A stretch of DNA of 11,245 bases from NCBI GenBank assembly GCA_003551985.1, contig PUOB01000242.1, forward strand, positions 1 to 11,245, written 5' to 3'. The notes under the pieces are model-generated. The model had not been told where the DNA came from, searched no databases, and worked only from the letters and a program-made list of their open reading frames with translations. Both the position numbers and the translations under genes were made by a program. Below are positions 1 through 10,995 of the stretch, in pieces. The first letter of the stretch is position 1. Each line of letters opens with the position of its first letter. This stretch comes from Desulfobacteraceae bacterium (lineage in GTDB: Bacteria; Desulfobacterota; Desulfobacteria; Desulfobacterales; Desulfosalsimonadaceae).

Positions 1-789
1 AAAAACAATCCTTTTGTGGTTATCAACTGCTCCGCTTACCCTGCCACGCTTTTGGAAAGTGAACTTTTCGGCCACGAAAAAGGAGCATTTACCGGTGCGG
101 TCCGGCAGAAAGCCGGACGATTTGAACAGGCGAACGGCGGCACCATATTTCTCGATGAAATCGGTGAAATTCCCCTGCAGGCCCAGGTGAAACTGCTTCG
201 GGTTGTCCAGAACCGGAAATTCGAGCGCATTGGCGGCGACACCACCATAAGCGTCGACATCCGGATACTGGCAGCAACCAACAAGGAATTGCTCCAGGCG
301 GTCAAGACGGGGGATTTTCGCGAGGACCTGTTCTACAGGCTAAATGTCATCCCTATGCATCTGCCGCCGCTTAGAAACCGTAAAAACGACATTCCATACC
401 TTGCCAGACACTTTCTCAGCCGCTTCAATGAAATCCAGGGCAAGTTCGTCAAAGATTTCGACACCGAGACCATGCGAAGGCTGCTTGAATATTCCTGGCC
501 CGGCAATGTCCGGGAACTGGAAAACACGGTCGAGCATGCCGTTGTCCTGGCGCGGGAGGACCGGATCATGCCCACGGACCTTCCATCGTTTCTCACAAAC
601 GGCGCTTTTACCGAAGGCGATGCCGCCCGCAAACCGGACAAGACACTTGAAACCCAGGAAAAGCAGCACCTCATCGAGATGCTCAACGAATGCGGCTGGA
701 ACAAAAAGGAAACCGCCCGCCGACTCGGCATCAGCCGCAGCACCCTGTATGTGAAGCTGAAGCGCTTTCAAATCAAAAATCCTGCTTGA
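1..789 (+). CDS. Sigma-54-dependent transcriptional activator, Fis family (5' truncated)
   Basis: The frame is open from the first base, so the gene begins outside the window; 262 C-terminal residues are visible. Seen in order: the sigma-54 contact loop GAFTGA (visible residues 28-33), a Walker B segment ending FLDEIGE (about 46-56), an [10 protein letters not shown] segment (about 106-115), the sensor II motif WPGNVREL (166-173) and a Fis-type helix-turn-helix (about 222-256). This is the standard bacterial enhancer-binding protein layout: the AAA+ ATPase remodels the sigma-54 polymerase complex and the HTH binds an upstream dyad. Walker A and any N-terminal receiver or sensor domain are cut off, so the input signal and whether it is an AtoC/NtrC-type response regulator cannot be seen. 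It lies directly upstream, in the same direction, of a near-consensus sigma-54 promoter serving the arsenate reductase operon, so that operon is its likely target (inference). The Fis-like domain and activator class are certain; the target is not. Confidence 0.96.
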
Positions 790-1449: not shown

Positions 1450-1824
1450 TTGGATCCCATCATTATGATCCTTGGAACCGATGAGGGTCAAAGCGAGCGG
1501 TTGGCCGGATTGCTCCAAGCCAACGGGTACCACCCGGACGTAAAGGACAATTTCGCCATGCTGACTGAAAGGCTCACAGAGAAAAAACCGGCGGCCATTA
1601 TCCTGGATATCGATGCGGCGCCCCATGACAATCATCTGTTTCGCGCCTTCAAGCGAAACAATCCGGACGTCATACTGCTCGGCCTTTCCGCCTATTCATT
1701 TCACCCGGCGCTGAAGGAGTCGATGGAAAAACACATATTCGCATGCATGGTGAAACCGATTGACCCGGATGAAGTTCTTTTTCTTTTGAAAACCGGATGC
1801 GACGAGAGTCATACCGACACATAA
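1450..1824 (+). CDS. Single-domain response regulator (receiver-like protein)
   Basis: This 124-residue protein consists of a CheY-like receiver domain only. It has an acidic pair (Asp11, Glu12), a probable phospho-acceptor Asp53 in IILDID, a Ser at the conserved Ser/Thr position (Ser80 in LGLS) and the conserved Lys102 in VKPID, so it looks competent for phosphorylation. There is no output domain. The start is TTG at 1450, supported by AGAAGG at 1435-1440. It is the first gene after the sigma-54 promoter and ends 29 bases before arrA, so it should be co-transcribed. It may relay signal to a kinase or to the neighbouring activator, but no partner is visible. The N-terminal acidic pocket is somewhat degenerate (DE, with little hydrophobic lead-in), so a non-phosphorylated receiver-like role is possible. 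Confidence 0.8.
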   Translation: MDPIIMILGTDEGQSERLAGLLQANGYHPDVKDNFAMLTERLTEKKPAAIILDIDAAPHDNHLFRAFKRNNPDVILLGLSAYSFHPALKESMEKHIFACMVKPIDPDEVLFLLKTGCDESHTDT

Positions 1825-1853: not shown

Positions 1854-4439
1854 GTGAGGATCAAACGCAGGGACTTTCTCAAGATAAGCGGCATTGCGGG
1901 CGCGACCCTGACAATGCGCCTGCCGGCCCTGAATGCGCTTGCAGCAACAGGACCATCAAATGCGGATAGTCGGGGCAATCCGGAAAATAAGAATGGAAAA
2001 TGGATCCCGTCCACCTGCCAATCCTGCACCGCATGGTGCCCGATCGAAATTTTCGTCCAGAAAGGACGGGCGGTAAAGGTGCGAGGCAACCCATTGTGCA
2101 AGGCCAACAACGGCTACTGCTGCCCCAAGGGACACATGGGGCTTCAACTCGTGTATGACCCCGACCGCGTTAAAGTTCCCGTAAAGCGGACCAACCCGGA
2201 AAAAGGCCGCGGCGTGGACCCCGGATTCGTTCCGATTTCATGGGACGAAGCAATGGGCACCATCGCCGAAAAACTGGTTGAATTGCGCAATAACGGGGAA
2301 AGCCACAAGTTTCTGCTGATGCGCGGCAGGTATTCAACCACGACCCGAAACATTGCATACAGTCGCTTCCCGGAAATTTACGGCTCACCCAACAACATCT
2401 CCCACAGTGGCATTTGCGCGGAAGGGGAAAAATTCGGCCCCTATTATACGGAAGGGCTCTGGGGATACCGGGACTATGACCTTGTCAATACCAAATACCT
2501 GCTGATATGGGGGTGCGATCCCCTGAGCTCCAATCGCCAGGTTCCCAATACCATATACCGGTTCGGCCACTTGCTTAAAAATGCCACCGTGGCCACGGTC
2601 GATCCCAGGTTTTCCACCTCCGCCGCCAAGGGGCACCACTGGCTCCCGGTAAAGCCCGGGGAAGACGGTGCGCTTGCGCTCGCAATGGCGCACGTAATCC
2701 TCAAAAAGGGTTTGTGGCACAAAGAATTCGTCGGGGACTTCAAGGACGGGGAAAACCGCTTTGCCGGCGATGGCTCACGGGGATGGTTCATGTCACGGGA
2801 GGCCGACATTGATGAAGACCTGTTCGAGGAAATCCACACAAACGGGCTGATCAAGTGGTGGAACCTGGTGCTCAAAGACAAAACACCGGAATGGGCGGCT
2901 GAAATTACAGGCGTCGACGCGGCAGTCATTGAAAAAGTCGCCACCGACATGGGTCACGCAGCGCCCCGCGTTGCCATCTGGCTCGGGCCCGGGCCGGTAA
3001 TGAGTCCCCGCGGCGCATACACCTCGTCGGCCATCCATGCCTTAAACGGGCTGCTGGGTTCGGTTGACAACGAGGGAGGCACCCTCCGGCATTCGTCAGT
3101 ACCAATCGGCAGCGAACCGGCGGCCGACGACTACGTCGATGACATCGCCCGGGAAGGCAGAACATACCCGAAAATCGATCAGCGGGGAACCAAACGATTC
3201 CCGGCATTAAAAGGCGGAAAATCCGGCGGCGGCGTGGTTACAAACAACGTACCCAACGCCGTCCTTGCCGAAGATCCCTACGACATAAAGATCGCGATGG
3301 GCTACTGGAACAACTTCGCATTTTCCGGTCATGACACCAAGCGATGGGAAAAGGCATTTGCCAAAATACCCTTTTACGTATGCTGCACGACGCATCCATC
3401 CGAATTGGCCCAGTTTGCGGATATTGTCCTTCCCGCGCCGCTTGCCCCCTTCGAACACATCAATGTCATCAACAACTTTGCCAATACATACGCCCACGTA
3501 TCCATTCAACAGCCGGTCATTAAGCGCCTGTGGGATACAAAAACATTCGAAACGGAGATCATGTGGCTTTTGGCTGAAAAGCTCAAAGAAAAGGGCTTTT
3601 CCAACATGTTCGACTATTTTTCACAGGAATTTGAGGACCCGGAAACCGGGAAAAAACCGATGAACGCGGAAGAATTCGCGGAGATTCTGGCCAAAATTTA
3701 CAGCAAGCCGGTATGGGCCCCCGAGGCGCCGCTGCCGGGGGATAAGCTGGACGGATGGGCGGATTTCAAGAAAAAAGGCATTTACAACTCCCAGCCGTAT
3801 ACATTCCGACAGCACTGGGGGAATTTCGGAACCGTGACGAAAAAATTCGAGTTTTACAGCGAAACCTTGAAGAAAGCCCTTACCGGCCATGCGGAAATCC
3901 ACAATACTGACATTGATGACATCCTCGATGCCGTTGATTATACCGGCAAGGGGGAGCTTGCATTCGTTCCCCATTACGAGCCGCCGTTACGGGTTGACGA
4001 CGAAAACGAATATCCCTTTCTGTTTATCGATTACAAGTCCCGGCTCAACGGAGAGGGACGAAGCCAGAACGCGCCCTGGTACTATGAATTCAAAAAAGTC
4101 GATCTTGGCGACGAGCGATGGGCGGACGTCATCAAAATCAACCCTGAAGACGGCAAAAAAATCGGTGTCAAAACCGACGACACGGTCCGCGTAACGTCCA
4201 TGGCCGGATCCATAACCGTTACTGCAAAGCTCTGGGAAGGGGTGCGTCCCGGAACCGTTACCAAGAGTTTTGGCCAGGGCCACTGGGCGTATGGCCGGCT
4301 GGCCGCGAAAGACTATAAGAACGCCCTGCCCCGCGGCGGAAACAACAACGAGCTGATACCGGACGTATACGAGCCGCTGTCCGGCAGTTCCGCCAGAAAC
4401 GGCGGGTTTTTCGGCGTTAAAATCGAAAAGGTATCTTAA
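1854..4439 (+). CDS. arrA: Respiratory arsenate reductase, molybdopterin catalytic subunit ArrA
   Basis: ArrA reduces arsenate to arsenite in the periplasm as a terminal respiratory step, using a bis-MGD molybdenum centre. The protein has 861 residues; known ArrA proteins are about 850. It begins with a Tat signal (RRDFLK, residues 5-10, then a hydrophobic stretch ending near ALA 28-30). An N-terminal 4Fe-4S site follows: Cys55, Cys58, Cys62 and Cys90 (CX2CX3CX27C). The family signature RGRYS (157-161) and the segment SPNNISHSGICAEGEK (178-193) carry the residues assigned to the Arr active site: Arg159, Tyr160, His184, Ser185, the Mo-ligand Cys188, Lys193, then Tyr205. Recalled Shewanella ArrA sequence is similar along the whole length, including IKRLWDT, SRLNGEGRSQNAPWYYEF and the C-terminal GQGHWAYGR. 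RGRY rather than the GRGWG reported for arsenite oxidase ArxA favours the reductase. Polysulfide, thiosulfate and tetrathionate reductases are relatives but fit less well. Substrate remains untested. Confidence 0.88.
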   Translation: MRIKRRDFLKISGIAGATLTMRLPALNALAATGPSNADSRGNPENKNGKWIPSTCQSCTAWCPIEIFVQKGRAVKVRGNPLCKANNGYCCPKGHMGLQLVYDPDRVKVPVKRTNPEKGRGVDPGFVPISWDEAMGTIAEKLVELRNNGESHKFLLMRGRYSTTTRNIAYSRFPEIYGSPNNISHSGICAEGEKFGPYYTEGLWGYRDYDLVNTKYLLIWGCDPLSSNRQVPNTIYRFGHLLKNATVATVDPRFSTSAAKGHHWLPVKPGEDGALALAMAHVILKKGLWHKEFVGDFKDGENRFAGDGSRGWFMSREADIDEDLFEEIHTNGLIKWWNLVLKDKTPEWAAEITGVDAAVIEKVATDMGHAAPRVAIWLGPGPVMSPRGAYTSSAIHALNGLLGSVDNEGGTLRHSSVPIGSEPAADDYVDDIAREGRTYPKIDQRGTKRFPALKGGKSGGGVVTNNVPNAVLAEDPYDIKIAMGYWNNFAFSGHDTKRWEKAFAKIPFYVCCTTHPSELAQFADIVLPAPLAPFEHINVINNFANTYAHVSIQQPVIKRLWDTKTFETEIMWLLAEKLKEKGFSNMFDYFSQEFEDPETGKKPMNAEEFAEILAKIYSKPVWAPEAPLPGDKLDGWADFKKKGIYNSQPYTFRQHWGNFGTVTKKFEFYSETLKKALTGHAEIHNTDIDDILDAVDYTGKGELAFVPHYEPPLRVDDENEYPFLFIDYKSRLNGEGRSQNAPWYYEFKKVDLGDERWADVIKINPEDGKKIGVKTDDTVRVTSMAGSITVTAKLWEGVRPGTVTKSFGQGHWAYGRLAAKDYKNALPRGGNNNELIPDVYEPLSGSSARNGGFFGVKIEKVS

Positions 4440-4455
4440 CAGGAGAGATATATAA

Positions 4456-5280
4456 ATGACACAATACAGCATGATCATCGACCTGCAGAAATGCGTGGGG
4501 TGTGGCGTCTGCGCCATTGCCTGCAAAACGGAAAACAATACCCAGGACCGCTCGGATGACCAGTCATTTAACTGGGCGGACTTCATTTTCGTGGAAAAAG
4601 GCGCATTCCCCGATATACAGTACGCCATCTATCCGACGTTATGCAACCATTGCAGCGATGCGCCATGCGTGGTAGTCTGCCCGGTGCATCCAAAGGCGAT
4701 GTATAAAACCGACAACGGCGTCACCATGCAAAACGAAGACCGGTGCATCGGCTGCCAGTCCTGCCAGGACGCCTGCCCATACAGCGAACGAAGCATCGAG
4801 AGGACATTTTACGGATACAGCGTTATCAGCTTCAACCGCATGGAACCAAACGCGTTCTACACGGACAAGGAAGAGCTGCTTTCGGGAATAACGGCTTCCG
4901 GAAAGGCGGTCTCCGATGCGGTCGGGGCAACCCCGCCGCACAAAACGGACATCAGCCATTCGGATTACAATGCCGTCCGGCAGTCCGGCATTATTGAAAA
5001 GTGCATTTTCTGCGAGCACAGGCTCAAGGCGGGCAAACTCCCGGCATGCGTGACGGCCTGCCCGGCAGAAGCCAGAATATTCGGGGACCGCCATGACCCG
5101 GAAAGCGATGTAAGCCACCTTCTGTTGACCCACAAGGCGCGCAGGCTGAGAAACAACCGGGCGGAATTCCTGACGCCCGACCAAAGGGGGCATCTGCCCA
5201 ATGTGTTTTATATCAATGATTACATGCGTCCGGAGCGGATTATCGTCGAAGGTGAGAATTTCAAAAAAACTGAGATTTAA
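4456..5280 (+). CDS. arrB: Arsenate reductase iron-sulfur subunit ArrB
   Basis: This 274-residue ferredoxin-like electron-transfer subunit passes electrons from the quinol side to the ArrA molybdenum centre. Four 4Fe-4S sites are visible: Cys13/16/19/23, Cys63/66/71/75, Cys97/100/103/107 and Cys183/186/198/202, the standard arrangement of DMSO/polysulfide/arsenate reductase B subunits. IDLQKCVGCGVC at the N-terminus and KCIFCEHRL near residue 182 are typical of the family. There is no signal peptide, so export would be by piggy-back with Tat-targeted ArrA. Compared with recalled Shewanella ArrB (about 234 residues), it has extra sequence between clusters 3 and 4 (about 110-180) and a longer C-terminus. 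The start ATG follows AGGAGAG (4441-4447), 16 bases after the arrA stop. Confidence 0.9.
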   Translation: MTQYSMIIDLQKCVGCGVCAIACKTENNTQDRSDDQSFNWADFIFVEKGAFPDIQYAIYPTLCNHCSDAPCVVVCPVHPKAMYKTDNGVTMQNEDRCIGCQSCQDACPYSERSIERTFYGYSVISFNRMEPNAFYTDKEELLSGITASGKAVSDAVGATPPHKTDISHSDYNAVRQSGIIEKCIFCEHRLKAGKLPACVTACPAEARIFGDRHDPESDVSHLLLTHKARRLRNNRAEFLTPDQRGHLPNVFYINDYMRPERIIVEGENFKKTEI

Positions 5281-5294
5281 TCGAAAGGATCAAA

Positions 5295-5981
5295 ATGCTT
5301 ACAGCAGCGCAAACACAGCGCCGGCCGCGTGAACCAAAAAATAACCGGGCGGTACAAATGGCCCGTGCGGATTGCTGCAGGCTTCTGGCCGCGTGTTTTT
5401 ACCCGCCGGACGCAAAACTGTTCGCAAGGGAAGGTCTCACGGATAAGCTCGGCGCGCTTTTAAAAATTGCATGCACCGGGGCATCCCCCCTGGTACCGCC
5501 CTTGCAGGCTCACCTTAAACACGAAAACGACAAGCAGCTATCGGTTGCCTATACCCGTCTTTTTCTGGGGCCGCCTGAAGTACTGGCCCCGCCGTATGCT
5601 TCTTTTTACCTGGACAAGGGCGGTACCGTCATGGGGCCGTCCAGCGTAGCCATCGAGGCATTATACGACAGTGCGGGCCTGGCGCTGGACAATGACTTCC
5701 AGGACATGCCGGATCATGTCGTTGTCATGCTTGAATTCCTTTACTACCTGATATTCCGGGAAGCACTGGCGGAGGACAGCAACGAATTCCAGCAGAAAGA
5801 AAACTTGAAAAACATAAGGATTCATTTTCTGAAAAATTACATCTTCACATGGATACCCGAGTTCTGCCTGAAAATCACGGAGGCCGAAACGCATCCATTT
5901 TATACGGGGCTGGCGCAATGCCTGGACACCTTTATCCAATGCGGATTTGCAACGCGCGAGGTTGACCATGCAGACATTTGA
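5295..5981 (+). CDS. TorD/DmsD-family molybdoenzyme chaperone (ArrD-like)
   Basis: A cytoplasmic all-helical chaperone of 228 residues, expected to bind the ArrA Tat signal and hold the apoenzyme until the molybdenum cofactor is inserted. Family features visible: YTRLFLGPP (86-94), PPYASFYLD (99-107) and a D-x-P-DHV segment followed by a hydrophobic helix (FQDMPDHVVVMLEFLYYL, 135-152). Length and motif spacing match the TorD family. The ATG at 5295 has GAAAGGA just upstream. It lies 14 bases after arrB and its last codons overlap the next gene by 14 bases, indicating translational coupling. The first 20 residues are basic and polar and not conserved in character; an internal start is possible. 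Confidence 0.88.
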   Translation: MLTAAQTQRRPREPKNNRAVQMARADCCRLLAACFYPPDAKLFAREGLTDKLGALLKIACTGASPLVPPLQAHLKHENDKQLSVAYTRLFLGPPEVLAPPYASFYLDKGGTVMGPSSVAIEALYDSAGLALDNDFQDMPDHVVVMLEFLYYLIFREALAEDSNEFQQKENLKNIRIHFLKNYIFTWIPEFCLKITEAETHPFYTGLAQCLDTFIQCGFATREVDHADI

Positions 5982-6624
5982 TACACTTTTAGCGGCATCC
6001 GCCAAGGCGCATGGCCACCTCTGCGCAGGGCAGGTGGTCGGGGTGCGCATGGCCATGCTCGGATGCCGCCTGATCGGTCTTGACGAACCGACCTGCCGCA
6101 ACCAGATCAAAAAGCTCATCGTGTTCGTGGAAATGGACCGGTGCACGGCCGATGCCGTGGCCCATGTCACCGGCGTCAAGCTGGGGCGGCGGAGCCTCAA
6201 GTTCATGGATTACGGCATCATGGCCGCCACTTTCGTCAACCTGGAAACCGGAAAATCGTTCCGGGTCATTTCCACCGAGGAATCCAGGGACCTTGCGGAT
6301 TCCTACGCCCCTGAAGTCCAGGGAAAAGGCCCGCGGCAGCTCGAAGCCTACAAACGGATGCCGGAATGCGTTCTTTTCCGCGTTCAAAAAGTGAAAGTCA
6401 ACCTGAGCGAATACGACCTTCCCGGTCCCACCCGCCGGAAAGTCACCTGTACCCGGTGCGGCCAGGTCATCCGGGACAAAAAGGAAGTCGCGTCCAACGG
6501 CGCCATTGTGTGCCGGCCTTGTACCCGGGAGGCCTACTTCTCCCATGCATCGGAAGTGAGCTGGCCGGATATGAACCAGATTCCCGAGCCGGTCGGCCGG
6601 ATTAAGGAGGATATGTCGTGCTGA
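5968..6624 (+). CDS. FmdE-family protein with C-terminal zinc ribbon
   Basis: A protein of 218 residues. The N-terminal FmdE domain has the signature HGHLCAG (15-21) followed by GVRMA and an EMDRC segment (55-59); these His and Cys residues probably bind metal. The C-terminus is a zinc-ribbon-like pair CTRC (161-164) and CRPC (182-185). FmdE was named from the molybdenum formylmethanofuran dehydrogenase operon of methanogens; in bacteria it is common beside molybdenum and tungsten oxidoreductases, with an unproven role in cofactor or metal handling. Here it sits between the chaperone and a molybdopterin-binding protein, consistent with cofactor maturation for ArrA. Start choice: ATG at 5968 with GAGG (5958-5961) at good spacing, giving a 14-base overlap with the chaperone gene; the in-frame ATG at 5947 has no such site. 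Confidence 0.88.
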   Translation: MQTFDTLLAASAKAHGHLCAGQVVGVRMAMLGCRLIGLDEPTCRNQIKKLIVFVEMDRCTADAVAHVTGVKLGRRSLKFMDYGIMAATFVNLETGKSFRVISTEESRDLADSYAPEVQGKGPRQLEAYKRMPECVLFRVQKVKVNLSEYDLPGPTRRKVTCTRCGQVIRDKKEVASNGAIVCRPCTREAYFSHASEVSWPDMNQIPEPVGRIKEDMSC

Positions 6625-7649
6625 AAAAAATACCGCTGGAAAAGGCTGTGGGAACCGAACTGGCCCATGATATCACCGAGATCAGCCCGGGTGAATTCAA
6701 AGGCCCCGCTTTTAAAAAAGGACACACGGTATGTGACGAAGACCTGTGTCATCTTCAGAAGCTGGGCAAGAACCACCTATACCTGCTCGACCTTGAACCG
6801 GACGAAATCCATGAAAACGAGGCCGCGGCCCTTCTGGCGGAAGCACTCGCGGGCGATGGCGTAATCGTCGGGGAAAAACCGTCCGAAGGCAGGATCAACA
6901 TATACGCGGCCCATGACGGGCTGCTCACGGTGGACACCGCCACCCTGGCCGCGTTCAACATGGTGGACGAGGTGATGTGCGCCACTTTGCACAACAACAC
7001 CCGGGTCCAAAAAGGCGCCCTTGTGGGCGGCACCCGCGCGCTCCCGCTTGTCTTGAAACGCGCGCCCGTCGAACGCGCCGGCCGGATCGCGGCCCAAAAC
7101 GGCGGTATCCTATCCGTCGCCCCAATACGCCCCTTGAGTGCCGGACTGATCATAACCGGAAATGAAGTTTACCACGGGATCATAAAGGACCGCTTTGCCC
7201 CGGTATTGTCCGGCAAAATCGAGTCGCTTGGCGCCAGGGTGCACCGCACCGCATTTGCGCCCGACGACGCGGATCAAATAAGCGCCAAAATTTTATCCCA
7301 CATCGAAAACGGGTGCGACCTGATCCTGCTGTCCGGCGGCATGAGCGTCGACCCGGACGACGTGACCCGGAAAGGAATAGAAAAGGCGGGCGCGGACGCA
7401 ATGCATTACGGCGCGGCGGTTTTGCCCGGCGCCATGTTCATGGCGGCCTATTTCGGCGACATCCCCCTATTGGGCATTCCCGCATGCGCGCTGCATCACC
7501 GGGCAACGGTGCTCGACCTGGTCCTCCCCCGCATTATGGCCGGCCTCAGGATCGGGAAAAAAGAACTCGCCCTTCTGGGGCACGGCGGGCTCTGCCGGAA
7601 TTGCCCGGAATGCACTTTTCCGGGCTGCACCTTCGGGAAGGGGGCATAA
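6618..7649 (+). CDS. Molybdopterin-binding protein, MoeA/MoaB-like, with Cys-rich tail
   Basis: A 343-residue protein with a central MoaB/Mog-fold molybdopterin-binding domain: TGNEVYHG (180-187), the conserved LSGGMSVDPDDVT (238-250) and a following PGAMF...LLGIPAC stretch (270-290). The first 150 residues resemble the extra domains of MoeA, so a role in molybdate insertion or binding of the molybdopterin cofactor is likely. The tail has four cysteines (326, 329, 332, 337), a feature seen in stand-alone members from anaerobes and possibly binding an Fe-S cluster or zinc. It starts with GTG at 6618, after AAGGAGG at 6604-6610, and overlaps the FmdE gene by seven bases. It differs from housekeeping MoeA in lacking the usual C-terminal domain, so it is better seen as an operon-specific accessory than as moeA itself. 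Confidence 0.88.
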   Translation: MLKKIPLEKAVGTELAHDITEISPGEFKGPAFKKGHTVCDEDLCHLQKLGKNHLYLLDLEPDEIHENEAAALLAEALAGDGVIVGEKPSEGRINIYAAHDGLLTVDTATLAAFNMVDEVMCATLHNNTRVQKGALVGGTRALPLVLKRAPVERAGRIAAQNGGILSVAPIRPLSAGLIITGNEVYHGIIKDRFAPVLSGKIESLGARVHRTAFAPDDADQISAKILSHIENGCDLILLSGGMSVDPDDVTRKGIEKAGADAMHYGAAVLPGAMFMAAYFGDIPLLGIPACALHHRATVLDLVLPRIMAGLRIGKKELALLGHGGLCRNCPECTFPGCTFGKGA

Positions 7650-8487: not shown

Positions 8488-8973
8488 TCACTTGACAGGC
8501 GTTTCGCTGCCGCGGCGGAAAACAAGAACCTCATCTCCCGGCCGGATTTCACCGCCTTCGAGTATCCGGACAAAAATCCCCTCCCGAGGCATGACGCAGT
8601 CACCGACCTGGTGAAATATGGCGCAATGATCATGGCATTCCTTTCCGATCTGCGTCACTTCGGCCAGAACGGACTGCCCGATCCGGATTTTTTCCCCCAC
8701 GGGAATTTCCCAGAGACGAATGCCTTCGGTCGTCAGGTTCTCCGCAAAATCCCCGGGGTTCACATCGATGCCCGCCTTCCGGATCTTCTCGATGCTCTCG
8801 ATTGCCAGCAGACTGACCTGCCTGTGCCAATCCCCCGCGTGGGCGTCGTTTTCAATGCCGTAATCCTTGATAAGCGATACCCGCTCGATGTTGTGCTTCT
8901 TTTCACCTTTTTTTTCACTGATGGAAACGGCCAGAATACGCCCTTCCCTTTCATTGGATAAATGCCCGGCCAT
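8488..8973 (-). CDS. MOSC-domain protein downstream of hgcB
   Basis: A 161-residue protein made of a single MOSC domain, the fold of the molybdenum cofactor sulfurase C-terminus, which binds cofactors or carries sulfur on a conserved Cys. Visible family segments: DAHAGDWHRQVSLLA (43-57), NPGDFAENLTTEGI (72-85), GKECHDHCAIF (110-120) with Cys113 and Cys117, and a closing EGIFVRILEGGEIRPGDEV. The start is ATG at 8973 with GGGAGGG about ten bases upstream; an in-frame ATG at 9027 lies inside hgcB without such a site. The gene follows hgcB by 44 bases on the same strand and is therefore probably co-transcribed with hgcAB. Similar short MOSC proteins often accompany molybdopterin biosynthesis genes, so it may instead serve the convergent arr module. 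Its biochemical role here is unknown. Confidence 0.88.
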   Translation of the reverse strand: MAGHLSNEREGRILAVSISEKKGEKKHNIERVSLIKDYGIENDAHAGDWHRQVSLLAIESIEKIRKAGIDVNPGDFAENLTTEGIRLWEIPVGEKIRIGQSVLAEVTQIGKECHDHCAIFHQVGDCVMPREGIFVRILEGGEIRPGDEVLVFRRGSETPVK

Positions 8974-9017
8974 GTAAAACGAACCCTCCCAGAATTTTTT
9001 CAACACGGTTAAACCAA

Positions 9018-9302
9018 TCAACAGCAATTCATATCCACCGGGATATTCTTTCCCTTAATCCATGTCTGGATGATATATGCGGCGCATCCCACACCCGGCG
9101 TGACGCTCATGGCCCCTGCCGGACAGTTATTGACGCAGGCGCCGCATTCCATGCACCCGTCCTTGTCGGCAATGCCGGCCTTTCTGCCATTGAGCACGAA
9201 AACGCCGTGCGGACAGACATGCGTGCAAATGCCGCACCCAATGCATGCCGTGTCGTTCAACCGCAGCGTGGCAACGCCCGAAAAATACCTGAATTTTTCC
9301 AA
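9018..9302 (-). CDS. hgcB: Mercury methylation ferredoxin HgcB
   Basis: HgcB is the dicluster ferredoxin that reduces the HgcA corrinoid and is thought to deliver Hg(II) to it. The protein has 94 residues with two 4Fe-4S motifs, Cys20/23/26/30 and Cys50/53/56/60 (each CX2CX2CX3C), a conserved lone Cys73 and the vicinal C-terminal pair Cys93-Cys94. All of these are diagnostic of HgcB and required or implicated in methylation in the studied Desulfovibrio system. The start is TTG at 9302: AGGAGG (9309-9314) lies six bases upstream, the gene then begins 28 bases after hgcA ends, and the lone cysteine falls at position 73 as in the reference protein. The longer frame from 9371 would overlap hgcA by 41 bases and add 23 residues of unrelated character. 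Confidence 0.96.
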   Translation of the reverse strand: MEKFRYFSGVATLRLNDTACIGCGICTHVCPHGVFVLNGRKAGIADKDGCMECGACVNNCPAGAMSVTPGVGCAAYIIQTWIKGKNIPVDMNCC

Positions 9303-9308
9303 TCTATG

Positions 9309-9314
9309 CCTCCT
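9309..9314 (-). promoter_or_regulatory. hgcB: Strong ribosome binding site fixing the hgcB TTG start
   Basis: Read on the - strand, AGGAGG lies six bases before TTG at 9302. It is the best Shine-Dalgarno match in the hgc module and decides the start against the upstream ATG at 9371, which automated callers may choose. Confidence 0.85.
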
Positions 9315-9330
9315 TCCCGGAAAAAACAAC

Positions 9331-10509
9331 TCAAAATGCCGCCAAGATCCATAAAAAAATACCCGCCGCAACCGCGCCGGCCTGAAACGGCATGCTGATT
9401 CGCATTTCTTTTTCCACCCCCGACGGCGAGGTGTACGGGGTGGCGCCGGTAAAATTCATGGCCAGAAACGAACTGACCGCCAGGGCGATGAAAAGCAGGG
9501 CAAACGTTTCAGGCACCCCTGTCTGTTCGCGAAAGAAAAAGACAAGCGGCAAAACGCCTGCAAAACCCGCAATCAAGCCTTTTACGCTGAAAGCCCGGCC
9601 CGGTATCCAGGGCAGAAACGCCGGCGTCAAAACGGCACCCGTGAAAATACCCATAAAATAAGCCGCAAGCATCATTGGACTCCGGCCGACCGCATCGCCA
9701 AACGAAAAAATGCCCGGCCCAATGCCCGACAATATAAACACCGCTGCGATTGTCCACAATGTCGGCTTCCAGACAAAATAAAGCTCCACCGGGGTAAGCA
9801 CCAGCCTTTCCCGGAGATCGAAGGTCACCTGCCGCATCTTTCCGGCGGCTTTCATGCGGTTGGCAATAAACGCCTCGATGTCGCCGGCCCGCACAGGACC
9901 CCATACCACCTCGAAACCACACCCTTTTTTCACATCCCCGGCCGAAACACCGTTTGCCGCAAGCTGCGGCAGCACGAGTTTTCGATGTGAAACCAGGCGT
10001 TCAAGGCCGGATTGCCGACCCCTCCGTATCACTTCCGCCGCTGAAAACAGGCCTTTTCCGCCGGCGCACCAGACGTTGATCCCCCTGGTGTCGACCACGA
10101 GGATCCATGCATCCGTATGCTTCAGCCGGGTTCTCAGCTTGTCGAAGCCGAGCTTGTAATTGGCGGTCACCAGAACCGGTGCGTCGCGTGAAGGCTCTCC
10201 GACGGCATAAAGCCCCGGTGCGAGCTTGTAATCACTTCTCCCGAGGCCGGATCTTGCCCGGACAGCGCCCAGAAAATCGTGAAAATCCAGGCCGGTTTTT
10301 ACCCTGGGAACCGGGCCGGCGGGTGTTTCCAGAAAATCCGCCACAAACCGGCAAACGGTATAGCCTGGCTTTTCATGAACACCGCTCGGCGGCGATGGCG
10401 GCGGACCGCAGCACGGCTCATCCGCGGCGTCTAAACAATCCGGCGAAGCCATTTCCGGAAAGGTCAAAGAGGGACAGCAGGCATCTTTTTTTGTTTCATC
10501 ATTTTTCAT
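9331..10509 (-). CDS. hgcA: Mercury methylation corrinoid protein HgcA
   Basis: HgcA is a membrane-bound corrinoid protein that transfers a methyl group from the one-carbon (acetyl-CoA type) pathway to Hg(II), giving methylmercury. The 392-residue protein contains the diagnostic cap-helix motif NVWCAGGK (145-152), in which Cys148 should be the lower axial ligand to cobalt. The surrounding corrinoid-binding domain covers about residues 48-235 (VKTGLDF, APGLYAVG, PVLVTANYKL, WILVVDTRGI). The C-terminal part has five predicted membrane segments (about 249-267, 278-300, 309-326, 334-352, 373-391). The related corrinoid protein CdhD lacks this membrane domain. The start is ATG at 10509, with AAGG nine bases upstream. 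This gives an N-terminal extension of roughly 50 residues relative to the 338-residue reference protein, rich in Pro and Cys (Cys11-12, 25, 33-34, 53). The open frame continues to 10773, but that part overlaps the regulator gene on the same strand in another frame and is rejected. Confidence 0.96.
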   Translation of the reverse strand: MKNDETKKDACCPSLTFPEMASPDCLDAADEPCCGPPPSPPSGVHEKPGYTVCRFVADFLETPAGPVPRVKTGLDFHDFLGAVRARSGLGRSDYKLAPGLYAVGEPSRDAPVLVTANYKLGFDKLRTRLKHTDAWILVVDTRGINVWCAGGKGLFSAAEVIRRGRQSGLERLVSHRKLVLPQLAANGVSAGDVKKGCGFEVVWGPVRAGDIEAFIANRMKAAGKMRQVTFDLRERLVLTPVELYFVWKPTLWTIAAVFILSGIGPGIFSFGDAVGRSPMMLAAYFMGIFTGAVLTPAFLPWIPGRAFSVKGLIAGFAGVLPLVFFFREQTGVPETFALLFIALAVSSFLAMNFTGATPYTSPSGVEKEMRISMPFQAGAVAAGIFLWILAAF

Positions 10510-10598
10510 TGATAACAACCTTGACAGTCTCGTAAAAAGTCCGGAATCCAGGCTTGTGCAACCTTTGAAGAACGGTAGGGGCGAATTCTCATTCACCC
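10510..10598 (-). other. hgcA: Spacer between the ArsR gene and hgcA
   Basis: This 89-base spacer has no clear promoter for hgcA on the - strand (only a weak TTGCAC with no matching -10), which supports transcription from the regulator's promoter. Just before the hgcA ribosome site it contains TTGACAGTCTCGTAAAAAGTC-like sequence (10521-10541), which resembles intergenic repeats I have seen in deltaproteobacterial genomes. Recognition is from memory only. Confidence 0.35.
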
Positions 10599-10602
10599 CT
10601 AC
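10575..10602. repeat. 12-bp hairpin overlapping the ArsR stop codon
   Basis: GTAGGGGCGAAT (10575-10586) and ATTCACCCCTAC (10591-10602) pair over 12 bases with one G-T wobble and a four-base loop TCTC. The regulator's stop codon (10599-10601) lies inside the right arm. No T-tract follows on the - strand, so it is more likely a partial attenuator, an mRNA stability element or a dispersed palindrome than a full terminator between the regulator and hgcA. Confidence 0.75.
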
Positions 10603-10913
10603 AGGAACGCTTCGATGGTTTTTTTGAAGGCATCCAGGGTCGCCCGGTCGATGCAGTAGCATGAACGTGGACCGTCCACAACGCCTATAACAAGACCGCT
10701 TTCTTTCAGGATCTTGAGATGCTGGCTCACCGTGGATTGGGCCAGGGGCAGAATGTCCACTATCCGCCCGCAAACGCAGCTATCGGTTTCAAGGAGGTGC
10801 GAAACAATCCGAACGCGGGCGGGATGCCCGAGTGCCCGGCATATCCGGGCAAAGGCCGCGTTTTCGAGCAGCGCATCGCCGGAGTCTGTTTTTTTTTCAC
10901 AACGATCCATCAT
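10599..10913 (-). CDS. ArsR/SmtB-family metal-responsive repressor upstream of hgcAB
   Basis: A 104-residue winged-helix regulator of the ArsR family. The recognition helix region reads LPLAQSTVSQHLKILKESGLV (about 55-75), typical of the family. Just before it, CVCG (Cys46, Cys48) matches the alpha-3 CVC metal site of arsenite-sensing ArsR proteins, although the third cysteine of the plasmid R773 protein is replaced (Ile51). A second CxC (Cys85, Cys87, in SCYC) lies in the wing, and Cys5 and Cys25 are also present, so an unusual thiol site is possible. It should repress until As(III), Hg(II) or another thiophilic ion binds. It lies 89 bases upstream of hgcA on the same strand; ArsR-type genes next to hgcAB have been reported in other methylators. 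The start is ATG at 10913 (or 10910), with AGGG about ten bases upstream. Confidence 0.93.
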   Translation of the reverse strand: MMDRCEKKTDSGDALLENAAFARICRALGHPARVRIVSHLLETDSCVCGRIVDILPLAQSTVSQHLKILKESGLVIGVVDGPRSCYCIDRATLDAFKKTIEAFL

Positions 10914-10953
10914 CGGTCATCCCTGGCAACGGTCGCCTCTTAATCGCATATTC

Positions 10954-10969
10954 ATCGTTAATCGACGAT
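10954..10969. promoter_or_regulatory. Candidate ArsR operator
   Basis: ATCGT-N6-ACGAT is a perfect 5-bp dyad that overlaps the -10 element and the start region of the predicted promoter. Next to it lie repeated ATCGTATATCGT-like AT-rich stretches (about 10967-10983). ArsR-family repressors typically bind AT-rich dyads overlapping their own promoter, so this is the natural autoregulatory site. The exact half-sites are uncertain. Confidence 0.5.
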
Positions 10970-10995
10970 ATACGATAATACGTAAAGAATGTCAA
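10967..10995 (-). promoter_or_regulatory. Sigma-70 promoter of the arsR-hgcAB operon
   Basis: On the - strand, TTGACA (10995-10990) is followed after 17 bases by TATATC (10972-10967). The -35 is perfect and the -10 matches four of six, at optimal spacing. It lies about 55 bases before the regulator start codon, and no better promoter is seen between the regulator and hgcA. Confidence 0.65.

What the first reader, a model, noticed from the sequence alone, without database searches (positions are those of the whole stretch)
8488..10913. Complete mercury-methylation operon: arsR - hgcA - hgcB - MOSC
Both genes needed for Hg(II) methylation are intact. HgcA has NVWCAGGK plus a five-helix membrane domain, and HgcB has two 4Fe-4S motifs, Cys73 and a terminal Cys-Cys. 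They are preceded by an ArsR-family regulator and followed by a MOSC gene on the same strand with short spacers. The presence of hgcAB predicts that the host makes methylmercury.
Basis: partly seen in the sequence, partly recalled or inferred. Interest (0 to 1): 0.93.

Follow-up and report, generated by a model that had tools for sequence, protein, structure and literature searches.

The report
ArsR-linked mercury-methylation genes near arsenate reductase
This DNA carries both genes known to be needed to make toxic methylmercury, intact, behind a gene for a repressor of the arsenic-sensing (ArsR) family and next to genes resembling those for breathing arsenate, so its host, likely a relative of sulfate-reducing bacteria, is predicted to methylate mercury, probably under arsenic-linked control.

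Summary
On the minus strand lie intact arsR (10913-10599), hgcA (10509-9331), hgcB (9302-9018, TTG start) and a MOSC gene (8973-8488). HgcA and HgcB pass their NCBIfam cut-offs; a tree splits HgcA from CdhE-like corrinoid proteins. Methylation is predicted, not shown; arsR-hgcAB is a known arrangement.

Added here: (1) A palindrome, ATCGT-N6-ACGAT, sits at the arsR promoter (two overlapping copies, 10952-10978) and upstream of hgcA in 32 of 33 related loci with arsR, with one unrelated hit in 1.1 Mb; it is likely the ArsR operator. (2) Converging on this operon is an ArrAB-like arsenate-reductase cluster. The arrangement recurs in one related genome, but three genomes with the same arr cluster showed no HgcA. 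(3) MOSC follows hgcB in only 2 of 68 related loci and lies beside arrA in three relatives, so it likely serves molybdenum enzymes, not methylation.

Verdict: a genuine, largely ordinary hgcAB locus whose arsenic-related neighbourhood makes the native role of HgcAB testable.

The parts
10599..10913 (-). arsR: ArsR/SmtB-family repressor, 104 aa, with CVCG in the middle and SCYC near the C-terminus
   Evidence: NCBIfam HTH_metalloreg 66.6 bits, cut-off 55; Pfam HTH_5; CxC[GR] in 31 of 31 hgcA-linked ArsRs read, two of 33 dropped for short frames
10952..10978 (.). predicted ArsR operator: two overlapping palindromes (10952-10971 and 10959-10978), core ATCGT-N6-ACGAT at 10954-10969
   Evidence: 26.5 and 23.2 bits; next best site in the window 10.7 bits
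10990..10995 (-). TTGACA, -35-like hexamer just upstream of the palindromes
   Evidence: sequence; TTGACA is the recalled sigma-70 consensus; the tool's own promoter scan did not list it
9331..10509 (-). hgcA: corrinoid protein with cap motif NVWCAGGK, five hydrophobic segments, and an N-terminal CCG motif
   Evidence: NCBIfam NF040863 419 bits, cut-off 275
9018..9302 (-). hgcB: ferredoxin with two 4Fe-4S motifs, Cys73 and terminal Cys-Cys
   Evidence: NCBIfam NF040864 116.7 bits, cut-off 99
8488..8973 (-). MOSC-domain protein (161 aa), 44 nt after hgcB; likely a molybdenum-cofactor accessory
   Evidence: Pfam MOSC 46.5 bits, cut-off 22.7; C-terminal part of PRK14499 207 bits, under its cut-off of 457; context
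1854..4439 (+). arrA-like: respiratory arsenate reductase-type molybdoenzyme with KRRDFLK Tat-like leader, RGRY motif and Cys Mo-ligand region (ORF open from 1797; start uncertain)
   Evidence: best PDB match Shewanella ArrA 6cz7, 947 bits over 813 residues, next 147 bits; NCBIfam ArrA 1096 bits, under its cut-off of 1600; RGRY at ORF residue 176
4456..5280 (+). arrB-like iron-sulfur subunit
   Evidence: NCBIfam ArrB 238.6 bits, best family but under its cut-off of 450
5295..5981 (+). TorD/DmsD-type chaperone
   Evidence: Pfam Nitrate_red_del 101 bits
5968..6624 (+). FmdE-family protein
   Evidence: Pfam FmdE 98 bits; start
6618..7649 (+). MoeA-like molybdopterin-binding protein
   Evidence: Pfam MoCF_biosynth 76 bits
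7751..8347 (+). mobB, molybdopterin-guanine dinucleotide protein B; converges on the MOSC gene
   Evidence: TIGR00176 137.5 bits, cut-off 76.2; start
1450..1824 (+). weak response-regulator-receiver-like protein
   Evidence: Pfam Response_reg 25.8 bits, under its cut-off of 30.2
16..789 (+). sigma-54 activator, cut by the window start
   Evidence: Pfam Sigma54_activat 175 bits from profile position 55

Best explanation
Window 8488-10913 holds an intact hgcA-hgcB pair behind an ArsR-family repressor gene whose promoter carries a conserved palindrome, the likely ArsR operator, so the host is predicted to form methylmercury under ArsR control, while the MOSC gene after hgcB likely serves the converging arsenate-reductase-like molybdoenzyme cluster rather than methylation. 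Predicted working: ArsR would sit on the two overlapping ATCGT-N6-ACGAT palindromes just downstream of the TTGACA hexamer and block arsR-hgcA-hgcB transcription until a ligand (arsenite, possibly S-adenosylhomocysteine) releases it. HgcB would pass low-potential electrons to the cobalamin of HgcA; HgcA would take a methyl group from S-adenosylmethionine; HgcB Cys73 and the terminal Cys-Cys (and perhaps the HgcA N-terminal Cys33-Cys34) would bring in Hg(II), which leaves as methylmercury. Shown here: the genes, their motifs, the family assignment, the palindrome and the neighbourhood. Shown by others for HgcAB: SAM as methyl donor, essential cysteines, ArsR control in strain ND132. Inferred here: operator function, ligand, co-transcription, activity and the role of MOSC.
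For: HgcA 419 bits (cut-off 275) and HgcB 116.7 bits (cut-off 99) against equivalog models; the acetyl-CoA decarbonylase/synthase gamma-subunit model gives 72 bits against a cut-off of 306. Tree: 110 HgcA-type rows apart from 14 CdhE-like rows, SH-aLRT 100; window inside a 16-row clade, 100. Palindrome: within 900 nt upstream of hgcA in 32 of 33 loci with arsR (the 33rd has one at -1121) and in 2 of 42 loci without arsR; one unrelated hit over 15 bits in 1,099,231 bp. Strict core: near hgcA in 24 of 33 loci with arsR and in L005 and L009, nowhere else in those 82 loci, 0.1 expected from shuffles. In G001, G005 and G006 the only other strict site lies inside an ORF; in G037, G038, G042 and G046 the hgc site is the only one in the genome. 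Literature passages: SAM donor and essential Cys (PMC11588087); ArsR control of hgcAB in ND132 as cited by PMC10349881. Arr-like cluster. MOSC.
Against: No activity, transcript or binding data; host unnamed, no genome held. Gene presence does not prove methylation. The weight matrix was built from the same sites it scores. With one mismatch allowed, ten further sites appear in G001, G005 and G006, about as many in G006 as the tool's reversed-pattern control (4 against 4; G001 5 against 0, G005 4 against 1), and six of the ten lie between ORFs by a mechanical call, so other ArsR targets are not excluded. 42 of 75 loci lack a detectable arsR. MOSC does follow hgcB in G006, whose assembly lacks the close arrA, which favours a link of MOSC with hgcAB. 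ArrA- and ArrB-like proteins fall below their NCBIfam cut-offs. G002, G003 and G004 have the close arr cluster but no HgcA was found in them. No terminator was found between mobB and MOSC or after hgcB, and the -35-like hexamer was not in the promoter scan.
Confidence: 0.8

Rival explanations
1. The four genes are one functional mercury-methylation operon in which MOSC has a direct part, for instance in handling sulfur or thiol ligands for HgcAB.
For: Same strand with gaps of 89, 28 and 44 nt; MOSC follows hgcB in G001 and G006 too, including G006, whose assembly has no close arrA.
Against: Only 2 of 68 related loci have it. MOSC homologues sit beside arrA in G008, G009 and G012, with no hgcA or hgcB match on those stretches. 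MOSC matches the C-terminal part of a MoaC/MOSC molybdenum-cofactor family, under its cut-off. mobB converges on it here, with one ORF between in G002, and further off in G006.
Confidence: 0.2
2. HgcAB here is an arsenic-handling system first: arsenite made by the neighbouring arsenate reductase would derepress ArsR, and mercury methylation is a side reaction.
For: CxC in 31 of 31 linked ArsRs read; arr-like cluster converging on hgc in the window and G001; reported arsenic response of hgcAB in ND132 (cited in PMC10349881).
Against: No arsenic substrate has been shown for HgcAB in what I read; a close arrA beside hgcA was found in 1 of the 80 loci (L036 has only a 29% match); G006 keeps hgc without arr and G002, G003 and G004 have arr with no HgcA found; the arr operon has no strict palindrome in the window.
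Confidence: 0.15
3. HgcA is a CdhD/CdhE-type corrinoid protein of acetyl-CoA metabolism, not a mercury methylase.
For: Pfam assigns CdhD (43.5 bits); closest solved structures are corrinoid iron-sulfur protein gamma subunits.
Against: HgcA equivalog model 419 bits; hydrophobic domain and NVWCAGGK present; tree splits it from the CdhE-like proteins.
Confidence: 0.01

Closest known systems
hgcAB of Pseudodesulfovibrio mercurii ND132 (arsR-hgcA-hgcB)
   Same: ArsR-like gene controlling hgcAB; HgcA essential Cys; HgcB Cys73 and terminal Cys pair (literature passages). Two loci titled Pseudodesulfovibrio carry the same palindrome (L048, L077).
   Different: The window's clade reads NVWCAGGK where most other loci read have NVWCAAGK; extra MOSC gene; converging arr-like cluster. 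ND132 itself was not fetched.
CO dehydrogenase/acetyl-CoA synthase corrinoid protein (CdhE/AcsC)
   Same: Corrinoid-binding part, 26-34% identity over some 120 residues.
   Different: No NVWCA motif in the aligned part; no membrane domain (recalled); separate tree branch.
Respiratory arsenate reductase ArrAB (Shewanella structure 6cz7)
   Same: Nearly full-length match at 947 bits, RGRY motif, NISHS-x-x-CAE Mo-ligand region.
   Different: 1096 bits against the NCBIfam cut-off of 1600; substrate untested.
SahR, the SAH-responsive ArsR-family regulator
   Same: ArsR family and a 20-bp palindromic motif (PMC4239095, passages; its letters are not in the text seen).
   Different: The SahR core regulon is sahR and SAM-cycle genes; here the strict palindrome lies at hgc, and the 11 other strict sites read of 17 in 13 genomes lie inside ORFs.

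Membership tests
HgcA mercury-methylation corrinoid protein | Score above the NCBIfam equivalog cut-off | tested here: met
   419.1 bits against 275
HgcA mercury-methylation corrinoid protein | Cap-helix motif N(V/I)WCA(A/G)GK (wording recalled) | tested here: met
   NVWCAGGK at residues 145-152; Cys148 aligned with Cys in 94 of 95 rows, the other row not covering it
HgcA mercury-methylation corrinoid protein | C-terminal domain of five transmembrane helices | tested here: met
   five hydrophobic segments, 250-392; hydropathy only
HgcB ferredoxin | Two CxxCxxCxxxCP motifs, Cys73, terminal Cys-Cys, next to hgcA | tested here: met
HgcAB methylator | Forms methylmercury from Hg(II) | not testable with these tools
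   no assay; prediction from genes only
CdhD/CdhE corrinoid family | Groups with CdhE in a tree | tested here: not met
   110 HgcA-type rows apart from 14 CdhE-like rows, SH-aLRT 100
ArsR/SmtB metalloregulator | ArsR-family model score, with a thiol pair for As(III) | tested here: met
   HTH_metalloreg 66.6 bits against 55; CVCG in the window, CxC[GR] in 31 of 31 linked ArsRs read; ligand binding not tested
SahR | Palindromes at SAM-cycle genes | tested here: inconclusive
   strict palindrome found between genes only at hgc in the three nearest genomes; weaker sites not excluded
Respiratory arsenate reductase ArrA | (R/K)GRY motif rather than XGRGWG of ArxA | tested here: met
   RGRY; rule from PMC6549141 (passage)
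Respiratory arsenate reductase ArrA | NCBIfam equivalog cut-off | tested here: not met
   1096 bits against 1600; so filed as ArrA-like only

The most novel reading that the evidence does not exclude
HgcAB belongs to arsenic metabolism: in this lineage it is wired through a near-dedicated arsenite-type ArsR, with one palindromic operator class conserved across many Desulfobacterota, to a converging arsenate-respiration operon, and its native job is to deal with arsenite or similar thiophilic stress made by that respiration, methylmercury being a by-product.
Probability: 0.15. Interest if true: 0.85.

Novelty: new member of a known kind. Interest (0 to 1): 0.5.

Why it matters
Methylmercury is a neurotoxin and the native purpose of hgcAB is unknown. 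A conserved and nearly unique palindrome in front of arsR-hgcAB gives a concrete DNA target for finding the ligand that turns methylation genes on, and the arr-hgc neighbourhood offers a natural test of the proposed arsenic link. The MOSC result warns against counting MOSC as a methylation gene.

Tried and rejected
CdhD identity for HgcA: rejected. MOSC as a conserved methylation gene: not supported. RNA elements: none at Rfam gathering scores; no tRNA. Terminator scan: three hits, all inside hgcA, fewer than the 5.1 mean of shuffles; one promoter-like hit, inside hgcA. Arr operon as a target of the same ArsR: the only strict palindrome in the window is at 10954, best weaker site elsewhere 10.7 bits. 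Whole host genome: none held. An ArsR elsewhere in genomes that have the palindrome but no linked arsR: G047 has a distant ArsR without the CYC end, G048 none at E <= 1e-10. Literature: hgcA with MOSC gave 15 papers; passages checked in two of them show only Moscow or nothing, the other 13 were seen in the listing only; hgcA with arrA as whole words gave 0 papers; the operator search found 122 papers with three of four terms and listed ten, all with zero hgcAB. The ND132 ArsR paper and the Haft and Gwadz selenoprotein paper are not held.
Full report
What is there. The minus strand of 8488-10913 carries arsR, hgcA, hgcB and a MOSC gene, all intact, with gaps of 89, 28 and 44 nt. HgcA scores 419 bits against the HgcA equivalog model (cut-off 275), HgcB 116.7 (cut-off 99), ArsR 66.6 against HTH_metalloreg (cut-off 55). 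HgcA has NVWCAGGK at 145-152, five hydrophobic segments between 250 and 392, and an N-terminal CCG motif at 33-35; HgcB has two 4Fe-4S motifs, Cys73 and Cys93-94. The nearest protein found is 97% identical (P0001).

Sample. 

Is it HgcA. A tree of 124 rows (window; the 82 loci; 13 HgcA-like and 14 CdhE-like rows from the family of G001; 14 database proteins) splits the 14 CdhE-like rows from 110 HgcA-type rows with SH-aLRT 100, and puts the window in a 16-row clade (100) with P0001-P0012, L001, L111 and L113.

Regulation. An expectation-maximisation search over 32 sequences (window and 31 loci; L027 and L060 dropped for short frames) found the palindrome TTATCGT-N6-ACGATAA in 31, L019 being the exception. 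The strict core ATCGT-N6-ACGAT lies within 900 nt upstream of hgcA in 24 of 33 loci with arsR and in L005 and L009, which have no linked arsR, and nowhere else in the 1,099,231 bp of the 82 loci; shuffles gave 0.1 expected. A weight matrix built from the sites finds it in 32 of 33 loci with arsR (L019 has it at -1121), in 2 of 42 loci without arsR but with more than 500 bp upstream (L005, L009), and at one unrelated place (L022); 7 loci had too little upstream sequence. In the window two copies overlap at 10952-10971 and 10959-10978, just downstream of TTGACA.

Genome-wide, G001, G005 and G006 have two strict sites each, one at arsR-hgcA and one inside an ORF; the reversed-pattern control gave 0, 1 and 0. 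I then gave ten more genomes, nine whose locus has arsR and the palindrome and one (G045, L070) without either. G037, G038, G042 and G046 have a single site, the hgc one. The other six have 14 extra sites, five of them in G045; the 8 that came with loci all lie in ORFs of at least 120 aa by a mechanical call, 6 were not read. With one mismatch allowed in an 18-base pattern, ten other sites appear in G001, G005 and G006: six between ORFs, three inside, one (L142) not placed; controls were 0, 1 and 4 against 5, 4 and 4 found. So the repressor looks close to dedicated, but a small wider regulon is not excluded. All 31 linked ArsRs read carry CxC[GR]; 21 carry [ST]CYC and 9 carry T[YR]FC. The CxC place resembles the arsenite site of E. 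coli ArsR (recalled).

Neighbourhood. On the plus strand, converging on MOSC, lie a sigma-54 activator (cut), a receiver-like protein, arrA-like, arrB-like, torD, fmdE, moeA-like and mobB. ArrA-like: best solved relative is Shewanella ArrA at 947 bits, next 147; RGRY motif, which PMC6549141 gives as the ArrA rather than ArxA form (passage); but 1096 bits against a cut-off of 1600, so it is filed as ArrA-like. In G001 the same converging arrangement is present without fmdE, moeA and mobB. Of 36 family genomes, 9 have an ArrA at E <= 1e-150: G001-G005 at 79-83%, and G008, G009, G012 and G024 at 54-55%. In G002, G003, G004 and G005 the close arr cluster runs to a contig end before any hgc gene could appear; G005 has arsR-hgcA at the end of another contig, but in G002, G003 and G004 no HgcA was found, only CdhE-like matches or nothing. 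So full linkage is shown in the window and G001 only. Upstream of the G005 arr cluster are a phosphonate-binding-type protein and a HAMP/sigma-54 protein. In G002 mobB converges on a MOSC fragment at a contig end, with one ORF between. G006 keeps arsR-hgcA-hgcB-MOSC, with a MarR gene, two HGD-D genes and then mobB beyond, and no close ArrA. No held paper has both hgcA and arrA as whole words.

MOSC. It follows hgcB in 2 of 68 related loci with at least 700 bp beyond hgcB (L001, L111). A MOSC match was found in 16 of 36 family genomes. In G008, G009 and G012, whose ArrA is 54-55% identical, MOSC lies next to and divergent from arrA, in G008 and G012 with a gene between that reads like an ArsR-type regulator (my reading of the translations, no family search). 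G008 and G012 have a more distant hgcA on other contigs. In G024 MOSC is some 37 kb from arrA. The likeliest role is in molybdenum-enzyme maturation, with its place behind hgcB a result of the converging layout; G006 argues the other way.

Mechanism. From PMC11588087 (passages): SAM is the methyl donor, HgcB clusters are proposed to reduce the cobalamin, and Cys93 of HgcA (Cys148 here) and Cys73, Cys94 and Cys95 of HgcB (73, 93, 94 here) matter for methylation. From PMC10349881 (passages): 14 of 31 confirmed methylator genomes have arsR within three ORFs upstream of hgcA, and ArsR control with arsenic response was shown in ND132; that primary paper is not held, and its SAH response is recalled. 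PMC7438021 (passages) reports ars genes near hgcAB. So arsR-hgcAB is known.

Verdict. Real and complete; a new member of a known kind; ordinary core, unusual neighbours.

Noticed in passing
L013, L019, L024 and 19 other loci, hgcB: The HgcB Cys73 codon is TGA in 22 of 78 loci (TGC 35, TGT 21) with the frame running on, in 21 of 22 to a terminal Cys-Cys, pointing to selenocysteine; the window has Cys. PMC11588087 cites a report that some hgcA and hgcB homologues may be selenoproteins.
   Followed up: partly
window 10408-10413 (HgcA C33-C34); L020, L021, L048 and others: The second Cys of the HgcA N-terminal CCG motif is TGA in 15 of 77 rows that cover both columns, Cys-Cys in 41; 24 of 95 rows have some in-frame TGA. 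None of these 15 is among the 22 loci with TGA at HgcB Cys73, though hgcB was not read for two of them, L076 and L084.
   Followed up: partly
L005 7963, L009 6085: Palindrome directly in front of hgcA with no linked arsR found; G047 has only a distant ArsR and G048 none at E <= 1e-10.
   Followed up: partly
L111 4944-8819 and L113 2392-6120: In G006 and G005 the gene divergent from arsR-hgcA is an AcrB-type (RND) efflux pump gene, with what read like partner genes beside it (partners read by eye).
   Followed up: no
L179 9899-10738 and L180 5879-6730: A gene that reads like an ArsR-family regulator lies between MOSC and the divergent arrA in G008 and G012.
   Followed up: no
L168 145-3370: The arr cluster of G005 has a phosphonate-binding-type protein and a HAMP/sigma-54 protein upstream, like the reported arsenic-sensing systems that start with a periplasmic binding protein (PMC5908839 seen in a listing with its abstract's start only).
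   Followed up: partly
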